Shown piece after piece: positions 17,065 through 25,981 of a DNA stretch of 64,000 nucleotides (position 1 is its first letter; each line of letters opens with the position of its first letter). The translations under genes were made by a program, and so were the position numbers. Source of the DNA: an uncultured Lachnospiraceae bacterium (lineage in GTDB: Bacteria; Bacillota; Clostridia; Lachnospirales; Lachnospiraceae); the NCBI GenBank assembly GCA_947565425.1, contig CANOFW010000002.1, positions 162,054 to 226,053 on the forward strand. The letters are read 5' to 3'. The notes below the pieces were generated by a model. It was given only the letters and a program-made list of their open reading frames with translations. It had not been told where the DNA came from and did not search any database.

Positions 17065-18495
17065 TTATATCTTTGGCTTCTTGCCTTCCGTTCCAGGCAA
17101 CGTATAGACTAAAACAGCACAACCACCGTCAATATTATCGTACAACGTCTTTGCCGCACTATAGGGCAGGTTGATACACCCATGAGAACCGCGCCATTTG
17201 TAATAATCTCCGCCAAAGCTTCCGCGCCATTTTGCATCATGAAATCCCACGCCACCATTGAACGGCATCCAGAAAGATACCGGACTGGCATACCCTTGGC
17301 CTCTCAGCGTGCGATTTCTCTCTTTATAATAGAGCGCAAATGTTCCCGTCGGCGTACTCCAACCTTTCGCCTCATTTCCCGAGACAAAATCAGATTCCAC
17401 AACCAGTTCCCCATCCTTATAGTAGATTAGATGTTGCGCTGTCAGATTGACTTCCACATAAGTATCTCCATAATCTTTCTTACCAGGGCTGTTTGCCGTC
17501 TTCTCATATTCCGGCTCCCTTGCAACCACCTTGCCCGCTTCCACCAGTTCTGTCAGCGCTTGCGTTTCTTTCTCCCGATCAATTTTCCATCCGTATTCCC
17601 CGCCGTCAATTTCTACTTTCTTCCCATAAGAAGTTTTGAACTTTCTGGACTTGCCCGCCGTATCCCAGTTATCCGCCAAACGGTTCACATAGGCAGCAAT
17701 CTGCTCTCCTGAAACACTGACCTGCTGTTGTTCGTCCACCGTAATCCACTGGCTGATTTCGTCTCCGTCTAACACTTCCTGTTCCTTACCAAACAAATAG
17801 GTGATCTTTGCGCGTGCATAATGGTTCATATTCTTCACAAGTCTCTTTAACTTCTTAGACTTTGCAGTAACTTTCGGTTTCACATAACAGTCTTCTTTTT
17901 CCAGCGAAAGAGAATCTTCAAGCTTGACAATCGCACGTTTCAGCGCTTTGAGAAACTTTTTCTTCTTAACCTTCGTCCCCTGCTCCTCTGGGATAATTGT
18001 GTACATGTTCTCCTTAGAATAATCTGAAACTCTGGCATCCTTGGGCTTTTGCATCTTATCTTTATCCATAATCTCAAGTTCATTCACCTGGCGTTTTAAT
18101 TTCGCTTCACTGAAATCAACCATAGTCTCTACTTCAATCTCAGATTCGTGAAAATAAGCCGTCGGCCATGCCAGACAATTCTGTTTTTGTAACTCCCGCT
18201 CTAAGCTACCGTCAAAAATCGGCATAACGCCAATATCTACCCCTGCAAGAACCTCTGTCTTGCCTTGACGTGCATTTATCTTAATCTCGTACTTTTCAAT
18301 TTCCTGCGTAATTGTCCACTCCACGTCCTTTACGGTATCTCCGGACGCGGTTACGCCATTGATAACCGTTCCTGGTAGAAAATGCGTGCTGTAAAAGAGC
18401 GCAAACCCTAAGTATATCAGAAGAAGCATCAGAATAACCCCAGATGTAATCCATACTCCCAGCCATCCAATTCCTGTCTTCTTTGTCTCCTTCAT
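17065..18495 (-). CDS. Membrane-anchored L,D-transpeptidase (YkuD) with peptidoglycan-binding-type repeats
   Basis: A 476-residue protein with a short cytoplasmic N-terminus, one membrane helix (about 12-35), a long extracellular region with PG_binding_4-like repeats (the first near GVTASGDTVKDVEWTI), and a C-terminal YkuD catalytic domain from about residue 345. The catalytic motif is intact: HDAKWRGSFGG followed by SHGCINLPYS with H438 and C440. L,D-transpeptidases make 3-3 peptidoglycan cross-links that resist most beta-lactams. The same window holds a MecA-like PBP system. An AAAGG site precedes ATG 18495. It is divergent from tRNA-Pro. Confidence 0.93.
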   Translation of the reverse strand: MKETKKTGIGWLGVWITSGVILMLLLIYLGFALFYSTHFLPGTVINGVTASGDTVKDVEWTITQEIEKYEIKINARQGKTEVLAGVDIGVMPIFDGSLERELQKQNCLAWPTAYFHESEIEVETMVDFSEAKLKRQVNELEIMDKDKMQKPKDARVSDYSKENMYTIIPEEQGTKVKKKKFLKALKRAIVKLEDSLSLEKEDCYVKPKVTAKSKKLKRLVKNMNHYARAKITYLFGKEQEVLDGDEISQWITVDEQQQVSVSGEQIAAYVNRLADNWDTAGKSRKFKTSYGKKVEIDGGEYGWKIDREKETQALTELVEAGKVVAREPEYEKTANSPGKKDYGDTYVEVNLTAQHLIYYKDGELVVESDFVSGNEAKGWSTPTGTFALYYKERNRTLRGQGYASPVSFWMPFNGGVGFHDAKWRGSFGGDYYKWRGSHGCINLPYSAAKTLYDNIDGGCAVLVYTLPGTEGKKPKI

Positions 18496-18605
18496 AATTA
18501 AATTGCCTTTCTCTTATGTTGTCTCTTTTATTATAAATCTATTTCACTCAAAGTCAAATAATTAGTCAAAATTATAGACATTTTTTGCTTTTAAAATTTT
18601 AAAGG

Positions 18606-18634
18606 TTGACATCCCTTGTCCCCTATGATAGAAT
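18606..18634 (+). promoter_or_regulatory. Promoter of tRNA-Pro
   Basis: TTGACA (18606-18611), 17-base spacer, TAGAAT (18629-18634), 34 bases before the tRNA. Near-consensus, as expected for a stable RNA gene. Confidence 0.85.
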
Positions 18635-18668
18635 GATTTTTGCATCACAGATAATTAATTTACATTTT

Positions 18669-18743
18669 CGGGGTATGGCTCAGCTTGGCTAGAGCGCACG
18701 GCTGGGGGCCGTGAGGTCGCAGGTTCGAATCCTGTTACCCCGA
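18669..18743 (+). tRNA. tRNA-Pro (anticodon GGG)
   Basis: A full cloverleaf can be drawn. The acceptor stem is CGGGGTA (18669-18675) with TACCCCG (18736-18742) and discriminator A. The D stem is GCTC/GAGC. The anticodon stem is CACGG/CCGTG around loop CTGGGGG, giving anticodon GGG. The T stem is GCAGG/CCTGT around TTCGAAT. CCA is not encoded. It reads CCC and, by wobble, CCU codons. It is a single-gene unit with its own promoter and terminator. Confidence 0.97.
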
Positions 18744-18749
18744 TTCAAT

Positions 18750-18788
18750 AAGAGACATGACTTCTATTTGAGAGGACATGTCTCTTTT
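18750..18788 (+). terminator. Terminator of tRNA-Pro
   Basis: AAGAGACATG (18750-18759) pairs perfectly with CATGTCTCTT (18777-18786) around a 17-base loop, with TTTT at the end. Confidence 0.85.
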
Positions 18789-18801
18789 GTGTTAAAATGA
18801 T

Positions 18802-18824
18802 ATGCGAACTTGTCCGCTTTGTTC
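18802..18824 (-). repeat. Dispersed repeat R1, copy 1 (GAACAAAGCGGACAAG type)
   Basis: The reverse complement of this stretch matches 29886-29908 at 22 of 23 positions. Its core GCGGACAAGTCCGC is palindromic (one mismatch in this copy). It lies between the tRNA terminator and the relA terminator. Confidence 0.7.
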
Positions 18825-18831
18825 TGAATAG

Positions 18832-18875
18832 AAAGCGTGTAACATCTGAAATCTTCACAGACGTTACACGCTTTT
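18832..18875. terminator. Terminator of relA (bidirectional hairpin)
   Basis: AAAGCGTGTAACATCTG (18832-18848) pairs with CAGACGTTACACGCTTT (18858-18874) with a single weak pair, giving a 17-base-pair stem. It lies 11 bases after the relA stop on the minus strand. Confidence 0.85.
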
Positions 18876-18885
18876 ATAAATGATA

Positions 18886-21219
18886 TTACCCTCTAGTCCT
18901 CTCAATGTCTATAATACTTTCCACTTGGCGTAGCTTCTCGACTAAGCTGTTCAATTCGTCTTTGCCCTTGGTGCGGAAAGCCAACGTGATAGTGGCAATC
19001 CCCTGTTTGCTGGTGGAGGAATGCACGGAGTCAATATCAATCTGGCGCTCCGTGAGAATCTTGGAAATATCGACCAGCAGACCAGTACGATTATTTCCAT
19101 AGAGCTTAATCTCCGCCATATAACATCTCTCGCTACACTCTCCAGTCTGCCATTCTGCATCTAAAAGACGTTCGCGGTCCAGTTCCGAAAGATTGACAAC
19201 ATTAATACAATCTGTGCGATGAATAGAAATTCCTCTTCCCCTAGTGACAAAGCCGACAATCTCATCCCCAGGCACCGGCGCACAACAGCGTGAAAAACGC
19301 ACTGCCACGTCATCAATCCCCTTCACGACAATCCCACTCTTAGAATGCGCTTTCCCGTGTCTCTCTCTATTACCGCCGGAAGACGAATTGCCTGCGCCGC
19401 TCTCTACAATTTTGAGAACGTCATCATCCGTCAGGGCAATCGAGTGGTCTTCCTGATAATATTCCAACATCTTATTGATAATCTGTCCTTCCTTGAGCCC
19501 GCCATGTCCTATGGCTGCCAAAACAGACTCCCAATCCCGGAAACCATATTTGCGCATGATACGACTCTGGTAAGAAGACTGGTTCACATCCGGCCAGTTA
19601 ATACCTTTCGACTTGCAGTACTGCGACAAAAGTTCCTTTCCTTTGGAAATATTCTCCTCTTTAAATTCACTGCGAAACCACTGATTAATCTTATTCTTCG
19701 CCTGCGTGCTCTTAACAATGTTAAGCCAGTCGCGACTGGGCCCCCGCGAATTCTGCGAAGTCAAAACCTCAATCCTGTCCCCATTCTGTATCACATAATC
19801 AATATTGACTAATTTGCCATTCACTTTGGCGCCAATCATTTTATTACCTACCGCAGAATGGATGCTGTAGGCAAAATCTATAGGTGTGGAACCTTTGGGC
19901 AGGTTCTTGACGTCGCCGGACGGTGTAAAACAAAATACTGTATCAGAAAACAGATCCAAATCGCTTTTCAGAAGGCTCATAAACTCACGGTTGTCAGACA
20001 TATCCTTCTGCCACTCCAATATCTGTCTGAGCCAGCTTAACTTAGCTTCCTCCTGCGTCTTTTCTTCCGTCTTATTGCCATTGGCCGCTTCCTTGTACTT
20101 CCAGTGCGCGGCAATGCCATATTCTGCCGTACGATGCATTTCAAACGTACGGATTTGAATCTCAAAAGGCTGCCCAGTTGGTCCAATCAACGTCGTATGC
20201 AATGACTGGTACATATTGGGCTTTGGCATAGCAATATAATCTTTAAATCTGCCCGGAATCGGTTTATACATTTCATGGATTACGCCAAGCGCTGCATAGC
20301 AGTCCTTGACTGACTTAACAATTATGCGAATTGCAAATAAATCAAAAATCTGATCCAGTGTCTTATCCTGGTTCACCATTTTCTTATAGATACTAAAGAA
20401 ATGTTTGGCGCGGCCGTCAATCGCCGCCTTTATGCCCGCTTTGGAAATATGCTGTTTCACTTCGTTCACCAGTTGTTCAACATATTCTTCACGCGTGCTC
20501 TTTCTAAGCGCTATCTTCTCTACCAAATCATAATACGCGTCTGGTTCAAGATATTTCAAAGAAAGGTCGTCTAATTCGATCTTTATCTTAGAAATGCCGA
20601 GACGCTGTGCAATGGGTGCATAGATGTCCATGGTCTCCCTTGCCTTCTCTTTTTGCTTCTCCGGCCTCATATACTTGAGGGTACGCATATTGTGCAGGCG
20701 GTCGGCAAGTTTAATCAGAATCACACGAATATCCTTCGCCATGGCAAGAAACATCTTGCGCATATTCTCTGCCTGTACCTCAACCTTATCCGCCTCATAA
20801 GGCAATTGTCCCAGCTTGGTAACGCCGTCAACCAAAAGCGCCACTTCCTCACTGAACTCTTTGGCAATCTCTTCTTCCGTCATCACGGTATCTTCTACGA
20901 CATCATGAAGAATACCAGCCACGATCGTCTCTTTGTCCAGTTCTAACTCTGCAAGAATAATCGCCACGCAAAGCGGATGGATAATGTATGCCTCGCCTGA
21001 CTTACGCACCTGTCCCTTATGCGCCTCGTCCGCAATTTTGTATGCTTTTTCAATTAGTGAAATATCCGTCGAAGGATGATAGCGTCTCACACTTGCAATC
21101 AGCTCGTCATACAAGCTCTCCGGACTTACAAACTCCTTCGTCGGTTTAATCTGCCCTGCCTGCGCTTCCACTTCCTGCCGTTGTTCCAACTGAATATTCT
21201 TCCCATCTTCCATAAGCAT
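18886..21219 (-). CDS. relA: Bifunctional (p)ppGpp synthetase/hydrolase (RelA/SpoT, Rel type)
   Basis: This 777-residue long-form Rel makes and destroys the stringent-response alarmones. In order it has an HD hydrolase domain (H81 in AYIIHPLCVA and HD at 105-106 in AGILHDVVEDTVM), a synthetase domain (GRAKHFFSIYKKM, then FAIRIIV, PKPNMYQSLHTT), a TGS domain (VFCFTPSGDVKNLPKGSTPIDFAY), a zinc-finger region (FSRCCAPVPGDEIVGFVTRGRGISIHRTDC) and a C-terminal ACT domain. Both catalytic halves look intact, as in the single Rel of most Firmicutes. ATG 21219 or 21213 may be used; the upstream site is weak. A good promoter lies 51 bases upstream. Confidence 0.97.
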   Translation of the reverse strand: MLMEDGKNIQLEQRQEVEAQAGQIKPTKEFVSPESLYDELIASVRRYHPSTDISLIEKAYKIADEAHKGQVRKSGEAYIIHPLCVAIILAELELDKETIVAGILHDVVEDTVMTEEEIAKEFSEEVALLVDGVTKLGQLPYEADKVEVQAENMRKMFLAMAKDIRVILIKLADRLHNMRTLKYMRPEKQKEKARETMDIYAPIAQRLGISKIKIELDDLSLKYLEPDAYYDLVEKIALRKSTREEYVEQLVNEVKQHISKAGIKAAIDGRAKHFFSIYKKMVNQDKTLDQIFDLFAIRIIVKSVKDCYAALGVIHEMYKPIPGRFKDYIAMPKPNMYQSLHTTLIGPTGQPFEIQIRTFEMHRTAEYGIAAHWKYKEAANGNKTEEKTQEEAKLSWLRQILEWQKDMSDNREFMSLLKSDLDLFSDTVFCFTPSGDVKNLPKGSTPIDFAYSIHSAVGNKMIGAKVNGKLVNIDYVIQNGDRIEVLTSQNSRGPSRDWLNIVKSTQAKNKINQWFRSEFKEENISKGKELLSQYCKSKGINWPDVNQSSYQSRIMRKYGFRDWESVLAAIGHGGLKEGQIINKMLEYYQEDHSIALTDDDVLKIVESGAGNSSSGGNRERHGKAHSKSGIVVKGIDDVAVRFSRCCAPVPGDEIVGFVTRGRGISIHRTDCINVVNLSELDRERLLDAEWQTGECSERCYMAEIKLYGNNRTGLLVDISKILTERQIDIDSVHSSTSKQGIATITLAFRTKGKDELNSLVEKLRQVESIIDIERTRG

Positions 21220-21269
21220 CTCACCATCCCGCCTGTTCTGCCGTCCTTGTAAAATTATAGGTAATCTAC

Positions 21270-21298
21270 ATTATAGATAAATTTTTTGAAAAAATCAA
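21270..21298 (-). promoter_or_regulatory. Promoter of relA
   Basis: Minus-strand TTGATT (21298-21293), 17-base spacer, perfect TATAAT (21275-21270). The leader would be about 45 bases. Confidence 0.65.
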
Positions 21299-21496
21299 CG
21301 GTTTATTTTCTTTCCCACAACAAATGCGTAACCTTTCAGCCTTGATTTTTATACTTATTTATTGGTAAATTCTTCTATTAGCAGCACCCCTTTACTTTTT
21401 TATGTGAAAAGAGGTGCCTTCACAATTTATTTTTTCATGCATTTGCCGCATCCCAACACAGACTTAAAAGATAGATTCTATATATCCTGTAGTTTT

Positions 21497-21772
21497 TTAA
21501 TATAGAACATCTAATACGATTTCCTTCCAGGCATCCTTAAATAAGATATTATCAATCTTAGCTTTTTCTATAAGTTCATCAATACTATCAAACGATTGTT
21601 CATTTTTATCAATCCAAACAGAAACAAAACTATCTGAATTATCTCTACTGATGAAGCCGTCTTTATTATTATAATTAAATTCTAATTCTCTTCCACATTC
21701 AATAAGATACTTTAAGGCTTTAATTGATTTATTTTCAAATAACTCTTTTACCATATTATCCTGTATATTCAT
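21497..21772 (-). CDS. Probable immunity protein of the toxin island
   Basis: A 91-residue acidic protein. I choose ATG 21772 because GAGGAAGG lies about 10 bases upstream; a longer reading from 21808 overlaps the previous gene. No signal peptide or membrane helix is seen, so it is cytosolic. The make-up (MVKELFENKSIKALKYLIECGRELEFNYN followed by F-I-S-R-D, V-S-V-W and a C-terminal W-K-E-I-V-L-D-V-L-Y) resembles the small beta-rich immunity proteins found beside polymorphic toxins carrying a D-x-D-F-x-H C-terminal domain. That pairing is from memory of such loci and is not proven. It is the last gene of the AT-rich module and overlaps nothing on its 3' side. Confidence 0.55.
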   Translation of the reverse strand: MNIQDNMVKELFENKSIKALKYLIECGRELEFNYNNKDGFISRDNSDSFVSVWIDKNEQSFDSIDELIEKAKIDNILFKDAWKEIVLDVLY

Positions 21773-21794
21773 AACACATTCACCTTCCTCAATA

Positions 21795-22433
21795 CTACTT
21801 ATTATCAAACATACTCACCAAAGAAAGAAATGAATTCCCGGAATATTTCTTTAACGGAGTAAGTCCTATGATATTTTGCGACCTATATTTCACATCTATT
21901 TCTTTAAATTGTGTTATTTCATTATACTCCCCAGAAGCAATCACTTCTTCATACATTGCTGGGTAATCATAAGTATTAATTCTGTTATTATAACTTGCAT
22001 ATATTTTAATATCTTTGTGTTCACTAATCCAATTCTGCAAGTCATCTGAGTATATTTTACTACTTAAACTTATATTTATTTTTTTTACATTCTTATTTAT
22101 CAGCTCATTTAATCCACGAATTATACTTTGTGAATTGATTTTTCCATCTACTTCTGCACTATAATAATAAATTTTAAAATTCTTATAATTGTTATTTGCA
22201 AACTCACACAATTTTTCACCATGAGATTCTGCTTTTTGACTATTATAATCAGATTTTATATATATAACATTTTCTATTTCCTTTGGTAATGAATCATCAA
22301 TGATTCCATATATTTCATTGTTTAAATTAGTTTTTGATATCAATATAATATTATTTAAATATGTATGTACACTAAAAACAACTATACCTATCATACAAAA
22401 ACTAACTATTCTTATTCTTGCTTTATTATTCAT
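21795..22433 (-). CDS. Small membrane-anchored subtilisin-like (S8) protein
   Basis: A 212-residue protein with one N-terminal membrane helix (about 8-32) and then a compact domain with the order and spacing of a minimal subtilase. Asp 46 lies in YGIIDDSLP (compare VAVIDTG), His 71 in ESHGEKLCEFA (compare HGTHVAG), KINISLSS at 118-125 matches the usual NMSLG strand, Asn 150 in ASYNNR matches the oxyanion Asn, YPAMYEEVIASG matches the YPA..VIAVGA loop, and Ser 201 lies in SGNSFLSL (compare SGTSFAAP). About 100 residues fewer than typical S8 enzymes. AAGGA lies 6 bases before ATG 22433. The gene lies between a toxin-like gene and a probable immunity gene. Whether it is an active protease is unproven. 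Confidence 0.6.
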   Translation of the reverse strand: MNNKARIRIVSFCMIGIVVFSVHTYLNNIILISKTNLNNEIYGIIDDSLPKEIENVIYIKSDYNSQKAESHGEKLCEFANNNYKNFKIYYYSAEVDGKINSQSIIRGLNELINKNVKKINISLSSKIYSDDLQNWISEHKDIKIYASYNNRINTYDYPAMYEEVIASGEYNEITQFKEIDVKYRSQNIIGLTPLKKYSGNSFLSLVSMFDNK

Positions 22434-22780
22434 AATATCCTTCTTATACTATCAACCTAATTAAGAGAGATACATAATGAACTCTTTAATTTGGGCTGTT
22501 TTCCCTATTATATACTCTTCCTATATTTTCATATTTCCTGCAAGATAATAAATTGAGTTTCTTAAATATTATCTACATATTATCTCCTGTACCAAAATAG
22601 CATTATAAAATTTTTACTATTCCAACACAGGAGATTTTAATATCTTATAAAAATTTTTTCTTATTTACATTCTCTCTACCACAAAAAAATGAGAATATAT
22701 CAATCAAATATCCCGCAGCAAGCTGACGGATATACCTAGCTTGTTCTTAGTAAGTCCGCCCCAAGGGTTGGGGGATTCGC

Positions 22781-22829
22781 ACCCGCAGGGCACTTAGAAA
22801 GATAGCCATGTATACCCGCAGGGCACTTA
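22781..22829. repeat. Short direct repeat in the AT-rich island
   Basis: ACCCGCAGGGCACTTA occurs exactly twice (22781-22796 and 22814-22829), 17 bases apart, in an otherwise AT-rich 450-base gap (22434-22884). The gap holds no open frame I can support. The flanking GC-rich stretch (about 22710-22865) looks foreign to its AT-rich surroundings. Confidence 0.65.
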
Positions 22830-22884
22830 ACATAGCTATTTCCCTAAGTGGGTACATTGCTCGCGAGAATAAAGATTATATTCT

Positions 22885-23748
22885 TTAATACCATATCCAA
22901 TAATGTGCATGCGGAAATGTATGCTTACCGCCATGACTAAAATCAATATCTAAAAAAACTTTTCCCTTTCTATCGTAGAATCGCCTTTGATATAGTTTTT
23001 TCCCATTTTTACTATATAAATCTGTACTCGAATCAGGTCTTCCAGTTGTCGGCAAACTTCCATTTTTACCCTTCACTTTTTTATTTTTTTTACGTCTTCT
23101 CGGAACTTGTTCTTTAGGAATCGCTACTCCACCTTTTCGTTTAGCCTTACTTTTTGATGCGGTTGAAGCTTTAATTATTGTATATACTTGATATGTGAAT
23201 ATAAAAGTTGCTATTGCACTAAGAATATAATAGCTAGCCGTTCCAGCAACTGTAATAGTTACTTGCCCTTCATACCCCTGAAAATCTACAGTATCCACCA
23301 ATTCATTGTTCTCATCGTAAATCTCAACCGGATGATCTTCTAAAACATCTTCAATTTCAATTGTACTAATTTCCTCTTCTATTGAATCAGCATATGAATC
23401 AGCATCAATAAAAGCATCAATGTCAATATCGTCAATTAACTCGTCAGCAACATCATTAAAATCATCAAACACTAACGTATAATCATCCTGAGAATAATCA
23501 TTTTCAATAGAAACATCAACATTCTCCTCTCCTGAATATGAAACATTCACCACTTCACCTTCATATTCTCCATTAATCTCAATTCCATCTTTGTTCTCGA
23601 CAACATTAAACTCAATACCATCCACATAAACAGTTTCAACATTGTCATCACTAGAATTAGCATTGGAAGTAAATGAAAAATCTTGGGTTATCAATGAAAT
23701 AATGATCACTATAGCTACAAAACGTTGGATTATCTTTTTGCTCTTCAT
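22885..23748 (-). CDS. Secreted or membrane-anchored polymorphic-toxin-like protein
   Basis: A 287-residue protein from ATG 23748, which has AGGGGA 7 bases upstream. In order: signal peptide (first 30 residues, MKSKKIIQRFVAIVIIISLI then a short polar end), a very acidic region of about 120 residues, a second hydrophobic helix (about 172-192, YYILSAIATFIFTYQVYTII), a strongly basic stretch (KSKAKRKGG, RRRKKNKKVKGKNG), and a C-terminal domain of about 58 residues that begins GSLPTTGRPDSSTDLY and ends DIDFSHGGKHTFPHAHYWIW. That ending is the form seen at the C-termini of polymorphic toxins of the type-24 group. The charge pattern would put the C-terminus in the cytoplasm if both helices insert. 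Family call moderate; activity unknown. Confidence 0.6.
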   Translation of the reverse strand: MKSKKIIQRFVAIVIIISLITQDFSFTSNANSSDDNVETVYVDGIEFNVVENKDGIEINGEYEGEVVNVSYSGEENVDVSIENDYSQDDYTLVFDDFNDVADELIDDIDIDAFIDADSYADSIEEEISTIEIEDVLEDHPVEIYDENNELVDTVDFQGYEGQVTITVAGTASYYILSAIATFIFTYQVYTIIKASTASKSKAKRKGGVAIPKEQVPRRRKKNKKVKGKNGSLPTTGRPDSSTDLYSKNGKKLYQRRFYDRKGKVFLDIDFSHGGKHTFPHAHYWIWY

Positions 23749-23901
23749 AAAGTTTCCCCTTTCGTTAAACTTATCCCCCCACAAAATGTTTGAAAAGTTA
23801 AACAAACATTCCCGGATTATTAGTTACAATCTATCATTATCAGGATCTTTCCTGTTATTTTTCACCCACTCTTTATGTAAGTAATATTATTCTTTTGCCA
23901 T

Positions 23902-24864
23902 TCAATTGTCAAGCACAATATCAATAGACTTTGTCCTGTTTCTTTCCAGTGATTTCGTATACCTTTGCAGCATTTTTCCCTGCACTTTCAGCTCTTCCTG
24001 CCAGGAAAATCCCAGATTTTCTGCCAGATGGATGGAAATGCCATTATCTTTATGTATCAAACAGTGCAGATTGTCAAACTCCGTTTCCTTCTGCGCAAAA
24101 TGTATAATTTCCCGGCAAAGCTCTGTGGCGTAACCCTGATTCTGAAATTCCTCACCAATTACATACCCCATCTCCAACGCCGGCTCCCCATGGAGCTCCA
24201 AACAATTGAGCCCTGCGCGTCCTATGAGCTTTCCGGTAATTTTATCAATGGCAAGCCACATTCCATAGCCGTAAAAGTAATACATATTTTCAATATACGC
24301 CCTCGTATATTCTTCCTCCTTCGCCCGTTCTTCATACAATCCTTCCATATATTGCGTGATGCTTTTGCCCTCGTATAGTTCATACAAATTGTCCAAATCT
24401 GCCAGCGTTATTTCACGCAGAAAACACCGCCTTGTCTCTATCGCCGTCCACGGCAGCCCGTGCTCACGCTGATACACGCGTTCCAGAAAATGAAAATCCA
24501 CTTCCTCAAAGCTTTCCACCAACACCTTAGCCGCAGAAAGCTTTTGACCGGGAATCCTCGGGTTGAGGTAGCCACAGGCCGCCATATCCATTCCTTCTAT
24601 AATAGAGAGAACACGGTCTGTCGCTGCGAGCAGCAGACAACATTCCGGCGTTAAGCTATGAAGGTTTAGCACTGTTAGAAGTTTCTCTCCGTTGTCCGCA
24701 CCAAACATATCCAGGTTGACAATCTGCACGCCATAACGGTACAAACCGTCTAAAAGTTCCGTCAACCCGTCCTCCATAACGAATCGTTCATTATCCTCCT
24801 CTTTGGCAATATTCAGTTCCCGCAGGGAAATGATCAATCCTTGCAATTTCATTTGTGTTTCCAT
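23902..24864 (-). CDS. GNAT-family N-acetyltransferase with an N-terminal HAD-like segment
   Basis: A 320-residue protein; I take METQMKLQGL at ATG 24864 as the start, with GGAGG upstream. A longer frame from 24936 begins at or before the predicted transcription start. Residues 1-130 resemble a reduced HAD-type fold (NLDMFGADNGEKLLTVL, then CLLLAATDRVLSIIEGMDMAACGYL) as in phosphatase-like gene products. Residues 145-310 are a RimJ/RimL-like GNAT domain (RCFLREITLADLDNLYELY; GRAGLNCLE; ALEMGYVIGEEFQNQGYATELCREI acetyl-CoA loop; HKDNGISIHLAENLGFSWQ). The substrate is unknown; a small molecule or protein N-terminus is possible. Confidence 0.85.
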   Translation of the reverse strand: METQMKLQGLIISLRELNIAKEEDNERFVMEDGLTELLDGLYRYGVQIVNLDMFGADNGEKLLTVLNLHSLTPECCLLLAATDRVLSIIEGMDMAACGYLNPRIPGQKLSAAKVLVESFEEVDFHFLERVYQREHGLPWTAIETRRCFLREITLADLDNLYELYEGKSITQYMEGLYEERAKEEEYTRAYIENMYYFYGYGMWLAIDKITGKLIGRAGLNCLELHGEPALEMGYVIGEEFQNQGYATELCREIIHFAQKETEFDNLHCLIHKDNGISIHLAENLGFSWQEELKVQGKMLQRYTKSLERNRTKSIDIVLDN

Positions 24865-24938
24865 TTTTCTCTCATTCCTCCAATTTTCATATGGTGGACG
24901 CCGTGAAGCACAACCGCACAGGCAAAATTGTTTCATTC

Positions 24939-24966
24939 AGTATAACACATCCGCTCTATATTGCAA
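24939..24966 (-). promoter_or_regulatory. Probable promoter of the GNAT gene
   Basis: Minus-strand TTGCAA (24966-24961), 16-base spacer, TATACT (24944-24939). It supports the downstream start at 24864. Confidence 0.45.
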
Positions 24967-25003
24967 CTTATGCAGGAAATACGGCATCTTATGTCTCGAA
25001 TGA

Positions 25004-25031
25004 TTGATAAGCTGCAATTATTGCGTATAAT
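25004..25031 (+). promoter_or_regulatory. Promoter of the LytTR-DUF3021-ABC operon
   Basis: TTGATA (25004-25009), 16-base spacer, perfect TATAAT (25026-25031). The start site would fall at about 25037-25039, downstream of the in-frame GTG at 25034. That rules out the GTG and favours TTG 25055. Confidence 0.65.
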
Positions 25032-25054
25032 AAGTGAAGAAAGGCGGTGGAACT

Positions 25055-25495
25055 TTGAAGATAGAGATTATCGTGGATGAAAACGCAAACGATCTGGACA
25101 TTGTAGTTACCTGTAAACGGCTGACGCCCGACGTCGAAAAAATTCTGGCGTCACTGCGCATGATTAACCATCAATTGACTGTCAAAAAAGACGGAGAAAT
25201 TCTTTTTCTGGACATTGCGCAGATTATTTATATTGAGAGCATAGATAGAAAATGCTTTATCTACACGCGCAAAGACGTGTACGAGTCCGATTACCGTCTT
25301 TACGAATTGGAAGGACAGCTTGAGGAATACGGCTTTCTGCGCGTAAGCAAATCATTTTTGATTCATTTACAAGATATTCAATCATTGAGAGCTGATATTA
25401 ACAGGAGAATCCGCATCACTATGGCGGGCGGAGAACAGATTATAGCTTCCAGGCAGTATGCCGAAGAATTGAAAAAAAGATTAGGAGTGATGTAA
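25055..25495 (+). CDS. LytTR DNA-binding regulator
   Basis: A 146-residue protein with a short N-terminal region (KIEIIVDENANDLDIVVTCK) and a C-terminal LytTR domain from about residue 48 (LFLDIAQIIYIESIDRKCFIYT, LEEYGFLRVSKSFLIHLQDI, RIRITMAGGEQIIASRQYAEELKKRLG). It lacks a receiver domain. I choose TTG 25055 because AAGGCGG lies 7 bases upstream and the GTG at 25034 lies before the likely transcript start. Such LytTR proteins pair with DUF3021 membrane proteins, as here, and usually control the linked ABC transporter; the DUF3021 partner may restrain the regulator at the membrane (inference from the family). Confidence 0.92.
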   Translation: MKIEIIVDENANDLDIVVTCKRLTPDVEKILASLRMINHQLTVKKDGEILFLDIAQIIYIESIDRKCFIYTRKDVYESDYRLYELEGQLEEYGFLRVSKSFLIHLQDIQSLRADINRRIRITMAGGEQIIASRQYAEELKKRLGVM

Positions 25496-25498
25496 TTT

Positions 25499-25981
25499 AT
25501 GGAAGAAAAAAGAACAATTTTTGACTATCTGGCGCAGATACTTACGATATTCGGATTTAATACACTGATATTAAATATATTTTGCCTTATTTTCGGAGAT
25601 TCCGCACAAAGCATGTCTTCCATGTTCGCACTTGGAAATCGCGGCATCCCCGTCGGTACCTGCTTGCAATTTCTCTGCGTTTCTTTCCTGATCACAGGGG
25701 CGCGTTATTTGTTTTTTACAGACACTTTCATCAAAACTATGGCGATCTGGTTAAGAACATTAAGTATGTTAGCCTCCATTATCTCCATAATTGCTATTTT
25801 TGCCGTCGCTTTCGCGTGGTTCCCCATAGATATGTGGCAGCCATGGGCAATGTTCCTTCTCTGCTTCGGCCTCTCTTTTGTGGGAAGCTACCTCGTGATG
25901 GTAATCAAAGAAAAATCAGAAAACAGACGGATGGAGGAAGCTTTACAACGTCTGAAAAAGAAAGGAGAATTGATGAAATGA
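25499..25981 (+). CDS. DUF3021 family membrane protein
   Basis: A 160-residue protein with four hydrophobic helices and a charged C-terminal tail (KEKSENRRMEEALQRLKKKGELMK). The length and helix order match the DUF3021 family, always found next to a stand-alone LytTR regulator. It lies 3 bases after the LytTR stop, and its own stop overlaps the ATG of the ABC ATPase (ATGA at 25978-25981). Probable role is membrane sensing or control of the regulator, by genetic association only. Confidence 0.85.
   Translation: MEEKRTIFDYLAQILTIFGFNTLILNIFCLIFGDSAQSMSSMFALGNRGIPVGTCLQFLCVSFLITGARYLFFTDTFIKTMAIWLRTLSMLASIISIIAIFAVAFAWFPIDMWQPWAMFLLCFGLSFVGSYLVMVIKEKSENRRMEEALQRLKKKGELMK

What the first reader, a model, noticed from the sequence alone, without database searches (positions are those of the whole stretch)
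21497..23748. AT-rich toxin - mini-subtilase - immunity module
Three minus-strand genes with visibly lower GC than all neighbours sit between relA and a GNAT gene. The first encodes a signal peptide, an acidic ectodomain, a second membrane helix, a basic stretch and a C-terminal domain ending in the D-x-D-F-x-H ... P-H-x-H pattern of polymorphic toxins. The last encodes a small cytosolic acidic protein that fits an immunity role. Between them is a membrane-anchored subtilisin-like protein only 212 residues long. A toxin-like protein whose N-terminal part is membrane-bound, with its own protease gene between toxin and immunity, is not a layout I know. One idea is that the protease releases or activates the toxin domain at the membrane.
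Basis: partly seen in the sequence, partly recalled or inferred. Interest (0 to 1): 0.78.

Follow-up and report, generated by a model that had tools for sequence, protein, structure and literature searches.

The report
Secreted toxin cassette with own protease
A bacterium carries a small inserted gene cassette that appears to make a weapon against other bacteria: a secreted, membrane-anchored toxin, the protein that protects the owner, and an unusually small dedicated protease that may cut the toxin loose.

Summary
Three AT-rich minus-strand genes (toxin 22885-23748, mini-subtilase 21795-22433, immunity 21497-21772) form an inserted cassette: in a genome of the same genus the flanking genes lie about 0.1 kb apart. 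The toxin's last 60 residues are a mobile polymorphic-toxin domain, also found on Rhs, LXG, phage capsid and other Sec-type proteins; relatives of the 91-residue protein go with that domain in 7 other loci. The mini-subtilase keeps the S8 Asp, His, Asn and Ser. Short intact S8 genes of this kind adjoin such a toxin in five other genomes. These toxins carry two unrelated C-terminal domains, so the protease goes with the delivery half. All 4 toxins beside the compact S8 have YxGQ[VM] where the ectodomain meets the hydrophobic segment; 18 other toxins lack it (post hoc). Best reading: a Sec-dependent polymorphic toxin, class III bacteriocin-like, with a surface protease that cuts it there. Cleavage, release and toxicity are untested. 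S8 is optional in the wider family, and a plasmid copy lacks the catalytic Ser. Subtilisins in polymorphic toxins are known; the separate mini-protease is the variant.

The parts
22885..23748 (-). Toxin gene, 287 aa (P0001): signal peptide, acidic ectodomain, hydrophobic segment, basic linker, C-terminal toxin domain
   Evidence: ORF and translation; ribosome-binding-site-like sequence, no internal stop; similar architecture in L067, L003, L039, L068, L069
23656..23748 (-). Signal-peptide-like N-terminus (residues 1-31)
   Evidence: Kyte-Doolittle peaks at residues 6-28; no signal-peptide predictor was available
23275..23655 (-). Acidic ectodomain with the VDG motif (residues 32-158)
   Evidence: hhalign of window+L067 against 6 other toxins (one of them, L086, without S8): probability 83%, P 8.7e-6 over 37 columns
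23254..23274 (-). Y-x-G-Q-[VM]-x-I motif (residues 159-165), candidate cleavage or recognition site
   Evidence: Y.GQ[VM] present in 4 of 4 toxins next to the compact S8 and in 0 of 18 other toxins (found post hoc)
23170..23268 (-). Hydrophobic segment (about residues 161-193), membrane anchor or insertion segment
   Evidence: alignment position and hydropathy (marginal in this copy)
23068..23154 (-). Basic linker (about residues 199-227)
   Evidence: sequence
22888..23067 (-). C-terminal toxin domain CTD-I (residues 228-287), QRRxY..G....DxD[FY]xH...PHxHxW
   Evidence: recurs on Rhs (L019), LXG (L022, L095), phage minor capsid (L098-L102), choline-binding (L097) and Sec-type proteins (L020, L021, L091-L093, L096; signal peptides judged by eye); weak Ntox24 score, below cut-off
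22434..22884 (-). 451-bp gap between toxin and protease containing dispersed repeats
   Evidence: 20 matches in the own genome at E <= 0.01, the locus itself included; a 16-nt direct repeat
21795..22433 (-). Compact membrane-anchored subtilase gene, 212 aa (P0002); Asp46, His71, Asn150, Ser201
   Evidence: Pfam PF00082 above cut-off; four catalytic positions conserved in 6 of 6 intact S8 aligned, the window's own included; profile of 4 compact members matches subtilisins in the PDB, best E 2.4e-6
21497..21772 (-). Immunity gene, 91 aa (P0003), RE[LI]EF motif
   Evidence: relatives directly follow the same toxin domain in L018, L020 (a fragment), L021, L091, L092, L093 and lie in the L067 cassette; PHROG 3711, E 1.9e-13
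21220..23901 (.). Whole inserted stretch between the RelA/SpoT-type gene and the GNAT gene
   Evidence: in same-genus genome G176 the two flanking genes lie about 0.1 kb apart and only the flanks match

Best explanation
The cassette is a horizontally acquired, Sec-dependent polymorphic-toxin (class III bacteriocin-like) system used against competing bacteria. The toxin is exported by its signal peptide and held at the membrane by its hydrophobic segment. The 212-residue subtilase, anchored by its own N-terminal helix with the catalytic domain outside, cuts the toxin at or near the Y-x-G-Q-[VM] boundary between ectodomain and hydrophobic segment and so matures or frees the toxic half. The C-terminal domain, possibly a metal-independent RNase of distant Ntox24 type, then acts in a neighbouring cell. 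The 91-residue protein neutralises it in the producer's cytosol. Shown by sequence: the insertion difference between two genomes of the genus, the toxin-domain shuffling, the toxin-immunity linkage, the S8 catalytic residues, the S8-toxin adjacency and the motif correlation. Inferred: export, topology, cleavage, target and toxicity.
For: Toxin domain recurs on unrelated carriers. Immunity relatives go with the same domain. Short intact S8 genes next to such toxins in five other genomes, found by searching with S8 alone (neighbourhoods). S8 and toxin show similar divergence and dN well below dS. The same delivery half carries two unrelated C-terminal domains, and S8 was found beside CTD-I only on that delivery half: 0 of 17 loci with CTD-I on other proteins. 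YxGQ[VM] in 4 of 4 compact-S8 toxins and 0 of 18 others. Catalytic positions conserved. Flanks adjacent in the same genus. The G345 copy lies among conjugation-type genes, named by eye. Cassette GC below its flanks in 5 of 5 relatives computed.
Against: The Macrococcoides plasmid copy (L082) lacks the catalytic Ser by alignment. The two further family members found by toxin profile alone, G162 and G099:C22, have no S8 in the stretch held (only 598 nt upstream of G099:C22), and 8 of 8 loci L083-L090 outside the family have none. So the protease is not essential in general. Basic residues follow the hydrophobic segment in the window's sequence and the net charge there is positive in 10 of the 14 toxins for which the script measured it (negative in 3, zero in 1), which is compatible with a cytosolic toxin domain that an outside protease could not free directly. 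The motif was found after the fact, in about three independent lineages. The delivery-half homology rests on 37 columns. No structure could be predicted.
Confidence: 0.55

Rival explanations
1. The subtilase protects the producer: a surface protease that degrades the toxin, its own or a sister cell's, as a second immunity layer beside the cytosolic immunity protein.
For: In the window and L067 the S8 gene sits directly beside the immunity gene; in L003 it directly follows it. S8 is optional in the family.
Against: S8 goes with the delivery half and with a motif in the toxin itself rather than with one toxic domain. In L039 and L069 S8 is the gene before the toxin.
Confidence: 0.2
2. The toxin stays in the membrane with its C-terminal domain in the producer's cytosol and kills its own cell when the surface protease cuts the ectodomain, as a stress- or phage-triggered suicide system.
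For: Acidic flank before and basic flank after the hydrophobic segment in the window's sequence. Geo26-type proteins were predicted OUT->IN in print (PMC13176240, passages read).
Against: The same toxin domain is found on export-type and phage-capsid carriers. No PADLOC model matched the three window proteins at E <= 0.01. Ali24, a protein with a similar signal-peptide and membrane-helix layout, was found in culture supernatant and inhibits related strains (PMC13176240, passages).
Confidence: 0.12
3. The S8 gene is unrelated cargo that happened to land in the same AT-rich island.
For: A repeat-bearing gap separates it from the toxin in the window and a longer gap does so in L067. S8 is absent beside many related toxins.
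Against: It is beside such a toxin in five other genomes in several gene orders; in L003 it starts at the last base of the immunity stop codon; dN is well below dS, though dS is near saturation.
Confidence: 0.08
4. The three proteins are not a toxin system.
For: No Pfam or NCBIfam model reaches its cut-off for the toxin or the immunity protein; toxicity was not tested.
Against: Domain shuffling over five carrier types with a linked small gene in several of them.
Confidence: 0.04

Closest known systems
Polymorphic toxin systems, Sec-exported class (Zhang et al. 2012, PMC3482391, passages read)
   Same: Signal peptide, exchangeable C-terminal toxin domain, linked immunity gene; releasing peptidases are a recognised part, subtilisin among them
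   Different: In the passages read the subtilisin of Sec-exported toxins is a fused domain (Acetivibrio cellulolyticus only) or, for Ntox38, a mycosin-like protease in the neighbourhood; here it is a separate, very small membrane-anchored protein beside short Sec-type toxins
Ntox24 (PF15529)
   Same: Overlapping stretch of the model matched; conserved His residues; carriers in print include LXG and MuF
   Different: Scores 13.7-16.8 bits against cut-off 24; no immunity family of Pfam matched P0003 at E <= 5, whereas Imm50 and Imm53 are the partners in print
Geobacillin-26 / alicyclobacillin-24 class III bacteriocins (NF035925; PMC13176240, passages read)
   Same: Sec signal peptide, 238-245 aa against 251-307 here, membrane helix towards the C-terminus; weak N-terminal profile match in one relative (L069, E 0.001)
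   Different: 19 bits against cut-off 40; their helix is near the C-terminal end with no toxin domain behind it; the word immunity does not occur in that paper's text, and an S8 peptidase is named only as one of the secretome proteins
SAR2788 family putative toxin (NF038340)
   Same: Signal peptide and membrane-anchor layout (recalled); weak match to one relative (P0007, E 0.24)
   Different: 11.2 bits against cut-off 50; of its family-wide matches the 7 loci looked at were not such cassettes
QhpE mini-subtilisin (NF049966)
   Same: Small S8 protease, model of 219 positions, best NCBIfam match of P0002 and P0005; dedicated to one substrate (recalled)
   Different: 19.4 and 36.7 bits against cut-off 165; QhpE is cytosolic (recalled) whereas P0002 has an N-terminal hydrophobic helix
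CylA, NisP and mycosins (recalled)
   Same: Dedicated S8 proteases that process a secreted toxin or secretion component
   Different: Larger proteases with other substrates; not compared here beyond the mycosin model matching the two longer S8 relatives below its cut-off

Membership tests
Polymorphic toxin system | C-terminal toxin domain shared between unrelated N-terminal carriers | tested here: met
   CTD-I on Rhs, LXG, phage minor capsid, choline-binding and Sec-type proteins
Polymorphic toxin system | Same carrier, different toxin domains | tested here: met
   VDG-type delivery half with CTD-I (window, L067) and CTD-II (L003, L039, L068, L069, L082); CTDs unrelated, hhalign probability 0.3%. 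Carrier homology rests on 37 columns, probability 83%
Polymorphic toxin system | Linked immunity gene | tested here: met
   P0003 relatives with the same CTD in 7 other loci; in the window it is separated from the toxin by S8
Polymorphic toxin system | Toxicity neutralised by the immunity protein | not testable with these tools
   needs expression
Releasing peptidase of polymorphic toxins (fused form) | Peptidase domain within the toxin polypeptide | tested here: not met
   S8 is a separate gene
Peptidase S8 (PF00082) | Pfam cut-off | tested here: met
   26.2 bits against 21.8; the compact relative P0005 alone falls below at 15.9
Peptidase S8 (PF00082) | Catalytic Asp, His, Asn, Ser | tested here: met
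   conserved in 6 of 6 intact S8 aligned, window included; the plasmid copy L082 lacks Ser
Peptidase S8 (PF00082) | Proteolytic activity | not testable with these tools
   needs an assay
Ntox24 (PF15529) | Pfam cut-off 24 bits | tested here: not met
   13.7 bits (window) and 16.8 bits (L096); only 1 of the 7 domains scanned matched at E <= 1
QhpE (NF049966) | NCBIfam cut-off 165 bits | tested here: not met
   19.4 bits, 36.7 bits
Geobacillin-26 family (NF035925) | NCBIfam cut-off 40 bits | tested here: not met
   19 bits in 1 of 15 toxins; a search of 249 genomes found nothing anywhere, controls included, so it does not show absence
SAR2788 family (NF038340) | NCBIfam cut-off 50 bits | tested here: not met
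   11.2 bits in 1 of 15 toxins
Anti-phage defence system | Match to a PADLOC model | tested here: not met
   none for P0001-P0005 and P0007; only generic subtilase and IetS models for the longer S8 P0008

The most novel reading that the evidence does not exclude
A separate, membrane-anchored subtilase of about 210 residues works as a dedicated sheddase for Sec-exported polymorphic toxins. It recognises a juxtamembrane Y-x-G-Q-[VM] site in the delivery half and releases whichever toxin domain is attached. In some versions (L039 by Pfam, L082 by eye) a TraX-type membrane acetylase gene is part of the set and would modify the toxin or the new end. This would be a protease-gated release route for antibacterial toxins in Gram-positive bacteria, spread by conjugative elements and plasmids.
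Probability: 0.35. Interest if true: 0.78.

Novelty: new variant of a known kind. Interest (0 to 1): 0.62.

Why it matters
How short Sec-exported toxins of Gram-positive bacteria leave the producer's membrane and enter a neighbour is, to my knowledge, poorly understood. A protease gene that travels with the toxin, paired with a conserved juxtamembrane motif, turns this into a direct cleavage test. If right, it adds a separately encoded release protease to polymorphic toxins and offers an unusually small subtilisin-type protease with a predictable site. The cassette is also a clean case of a weapon sitting between two genes that are neighbours in a relative.

Tried and rejected
SAR2788 model (NF038340) as a family probe: 38 of 200 genomes matched at E <= 0.01, none over the cut-off. 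The G099 tandem array it pointed to (L038) encodes lipoprotein-like proteins and is unrelated. Of the other matches I looked at L023, L027, L028, L031, L033 and L034 and saw no such cassette; the rest were not looked at.

Geobacillin-26 model (NF035925) in 249 genomes: 0 matches and no control rang, so uninformative.

Rfam in 21200-24000: two sub-threshold hits, taken as chance. PDB sequences: no relative of CTD-I beyond one chance-level match (E 0.035, glycosyltransferase), none at E <= 1 for CTD-II or the immunity family.

The genome-contig scan with P0002 alone found nothing. The viral-contig scan gave no mini-S8 relative, nor did the phage collection; plasmid matches to P0005 covered at most 54% of the query.

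Inconclusive: whether CTD-I belongs to Ntox24, and whether its D-x-x-H-G stretch resembles the colicin E3 active site (recalled, not tested). Membrane topology was judged by hydropathy only. The promoter and terminator scan (21 promoter-like sites against 16.5 expected) decided nothing.

Not examined: of the 16 S8 rows, 12 were not examined in their surroundings from that call; of the 24 rows I examined 10, and the 14 in long open frames (509-939 aa) were not examined. Of the 28 toxin rows, 8 are full-length; of the 20 weak ones I looked at 2 (L132, L133; nothing clear in L133). Absence of S8 in L130-L132 was judged from the ORF list, not with the profile.
Full report
WHAT IS THERE. On the minus strand between a RelA/SpoT-type gene (18886-21219) and a GNAT gene (23902-24936), both named by eye, lie a 287-aa toxin gene (22885-23748), a 212-aa subtilase gene (21795-22433) and a 91-aa gene (21497-21772), all with ribosome-binding-site-like upstream sequences and without internal stops. 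GC is 0.329, 0.244 and 0.254 with GC3 about 0.2, against 0.45-0.46 and GC3 about 0.5 for both neighbours; the cassette contains the lowest GC of the window. The 451-bp gap between toxin and protease contains short dispersed repeats, with 20 matches in the own genome including the locus itself.

INSERTION. In G176, a genome of the same genus, the RelA-type protein is 88% identical and the GNAT gene ends about 0.1 kb from its start; comparing window 18001-25500 with that stretch, only the two flanks match by blastn. The window has about 2.7 kb there. So the cassette was gained in this lineage or lost in the other; its low GC favours gain.

TOXIN DOMAIN. The last 60 residues match other proteins: a 130-aa frame in L018 and the end of a 4316-aa frame in L019, of which the held part has Rhs domains, Sec-type proteins on Cytobacillus and Paraclostridium plasmids (L020, L021), and an LXG protein in a Listeria record (L022). 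A viral-contig scan gave 12 loci: Sec-type proteins (L091, L092, L093, L096; signal peptides by eye), an LXG protein (L095), a choline-binding protein (L097), five phage minor capsid proteins (L098-L102; Pfam was run on L098 and L102, the others by eye; the printed ends of L098-L100 are the same), and L094, whose frame was not resolved. Invariant across the 11 aligned members are D, QRR, Y, G, DxD, H, H and PHxHxW. Pfam Ntox24 is touched at 13.7 bits (window) and 16.8 bits (L096) against a cut-off of 24, so membership is not met; Zhang et al. thought a metal-independent RNase conceivable for Ntox24 (PMC3482391, passages).

IMMUNITY. Small proteins sharing RE[LI]EF with P0003 stand directly after the same domain in L018, L020, L021, L091, L092 and L093, and one lies in the L067 cassette (8 rows aligned, of which L020 is a fragment). 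P0003 matches PHROG 3711 (E 1.9e-13), as do the followers in L018 and L091. The toxins of L019 and L022 have a different follower.

PROTEASE. P0002 is an S8 peptidase above the Pfam cut-off. The four compact members (window, L067, L003, L068; 211-216 aa from the starts I chose) and two longer ones (L039 279 aa, L069 297 aa) keep Asp, His, Asn and Ser in 6 of 6. In the compact form the chain ends 11-13 residues after the Ser. It starts with a hydrophobic helix, so the catalytic part is expected outside (inference). dN/dS between window and L067 is 0.345/1.28 for S8, 0.278/1.05 for the toxin part compared and 0.308/2.30 for immunity; dS is near saturation.

ASSOCIATION. Searching 200 and then 397 genomes of the family with the protease gave 13 genomes at E <= 0.001 and 19 at E <= 1e-6. 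Of the 24 rows, six are complete S8 genes in frames of 217-308 aa (the window included), and all six adjoin a toxin gene of this architecture; in L067 its signal-sequence region is broken by a stop. What I call immunity has support by homology for window and L067; for L003, L039 and L069 it is the next small gene, similar to each other by eye, and for L068 the third gene is a 225-aa frame of unknown kin. Gene orders: toxin-S8-immunity (window, L067), toxin-immunity-S8 (L003), toxin-S8-225 aa (L068), S8-toxin-immunity (L069), S8-toxin-TraX-immunity (L039; TraX by Pfam, E 2.1e-29). Four further rows examined had no toxin: a remnant in Mobilisporobacter (G099), G097:C180 (a 276-aa frame broken by unread bases), G009 (an intact 321-aa S8 in an ABC-transporter operon) and G334 (contig end, gene not resolved). 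The other 14 rows are long proteins and were not examined. The reverse search, with a 13-toxin profile in 397 family genomes, gave 25 genomes with a match and 8 full-length hits; six have S8, but those six were in the query. The two new ones, G162 and G099:C22, have toxin and putative immunity genes and no S8 in the stretch held. Outside the family, the toxin loci L083-L090 (two of them, L083 and L084, with damaged toxin genes) have no S8 in the stretch held, 8 of 8. The Macrococcoides plasmid NZ_CP065730.1 has toxin, immunity, TraX-like gene (by eye) and an annotated S8 whose Ser position reads Phe in the alignment. So S8 is an optional part.

WHICH HALF DOES S8 GO WITH? S8-linked toxins carry two C-terminal domains that do not resemble each other (hhalign probability 0.3%). 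Their delivery halves share a VDG motif (probability 83%, P 8.7e-6, only 37 columns) and the hydrophobic segment; toxins without S8 have the same kind of delivery half. Around 17 loci carrying CTD-I on other proteins, an S8 profile found no protease; one marginal hit was the L091 toxin's own frame (E 0.0015, taken as chance), and some of these loci are short. Lining up 22 toxins at the hydrophobic boundary, Y-x-G-Q-[VM] stands there in 4 of 4 with compact S8, 0 of 2 with long S8, 0 of 1 with the Ser-less S8 and 0 of 15 with none. By simple arithmetic, just these four of 22 would be 1 in 7315 by chance, but the motif was seen first and the four are about three independent lineages, so this is a lead and not a test.

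MECHANISM. I think it most likely that S8 cuts the exported toxin at this boundary and thereby matures or frees it. Not settled: the toxic domain may lie on the cytosolic side (basic residues follow the hydrophobic stretch in the window protein; net charge there is positive in 10 of 14 relatives measured), in which case cutting the ectodomain would have another meaning, and a protective role for S8 remains possible.

COMPARISON. Zhang et al. 2012 (PMC3482391; passages found by term, not the whole text) list subtilisin among proteases of Sec-exported toxins with the note that it is fused only in Acetivibrio cellulolyticus, S8 with Ntox32, and a mycosin-like protease in the neighbourhood of Ntox38. 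Geo26 and Ali24 bacteriocins share the signal-peptide and membrane-helix layout (PMC13176240, passages) but family cut-offs are not met. Searches for polymorphic toxin with subtilisin-like or subtilase, mini-subtilisin, releasing peptidase, S8/TraX/bacteriocin, and subtilisin-like/interbacterial combinations (with 15 of 49 listed, 133; listings and abstract starts seen) showed no paper on a stand-alone mini-subtilase with such toxins in this open-licence library. That is a limited search.

VERDICT. A real, inserted, conserved toxin-immunity cassette with an optional dedicated mini-subtilase: a new variant of a known kind, with a sharp and cheap test of its mechanism.

Noticed in passing
window 22704-22873: Dispersed short repeats in the toxin-protease gap, 70-96% alike, 20 matches over the own genome including the locus itself; contains a 16-nt direct repeat at 22781-22796 and 22814-22829.
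   Followed up: partly
L082 3278-4455: Macrococcoides caseolyticum plasmid: S8 gene whose catalytic Ser position reads Phe, next to a TraX-like gene and divergent from toxin and immunity genes; L039 also has S8, TraX, toxin and immunity together.
   Followed up: partly
L067 (G225), upstream of 7923: The signal-sequence region of the closest relative's toxin is interrupted by a stop codon.
   Followed up: no
L068, L134, L135 (G345): The cassette lies among conjugation-type genes (TraG/VirB4/TrbL-like, single-strand-binding protein, methylase, all named by eye), so it probably rides on an integrative conjugative element.
   Followed up: partly
L132 2748-4474 (G345): Second signal-peptide toxin-like gene with an HxH-rich end and a following gene of 235 aa, no S8 in the ORF list.
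   Followed up: no
L070 1499-6378 (G009): A 321-aa S8 protease gene in an operon with an ABC transporter and signal-peptide proteins; looks like a bacteriocin-type cluster of another kind.
   Followed up: no
L038 (G099): Tandem array of similar lipoprotein-like genes of about 250-270 aa alternating with short frames, beside 940-982-aa proteins.
   Followed up: no
L042 8513-8846 (G099, Mobilisporobacter senegalensis): Degraded mini-subtilase in overlapping short frames without a toxin gene of this type beside it.
   Followed up: no
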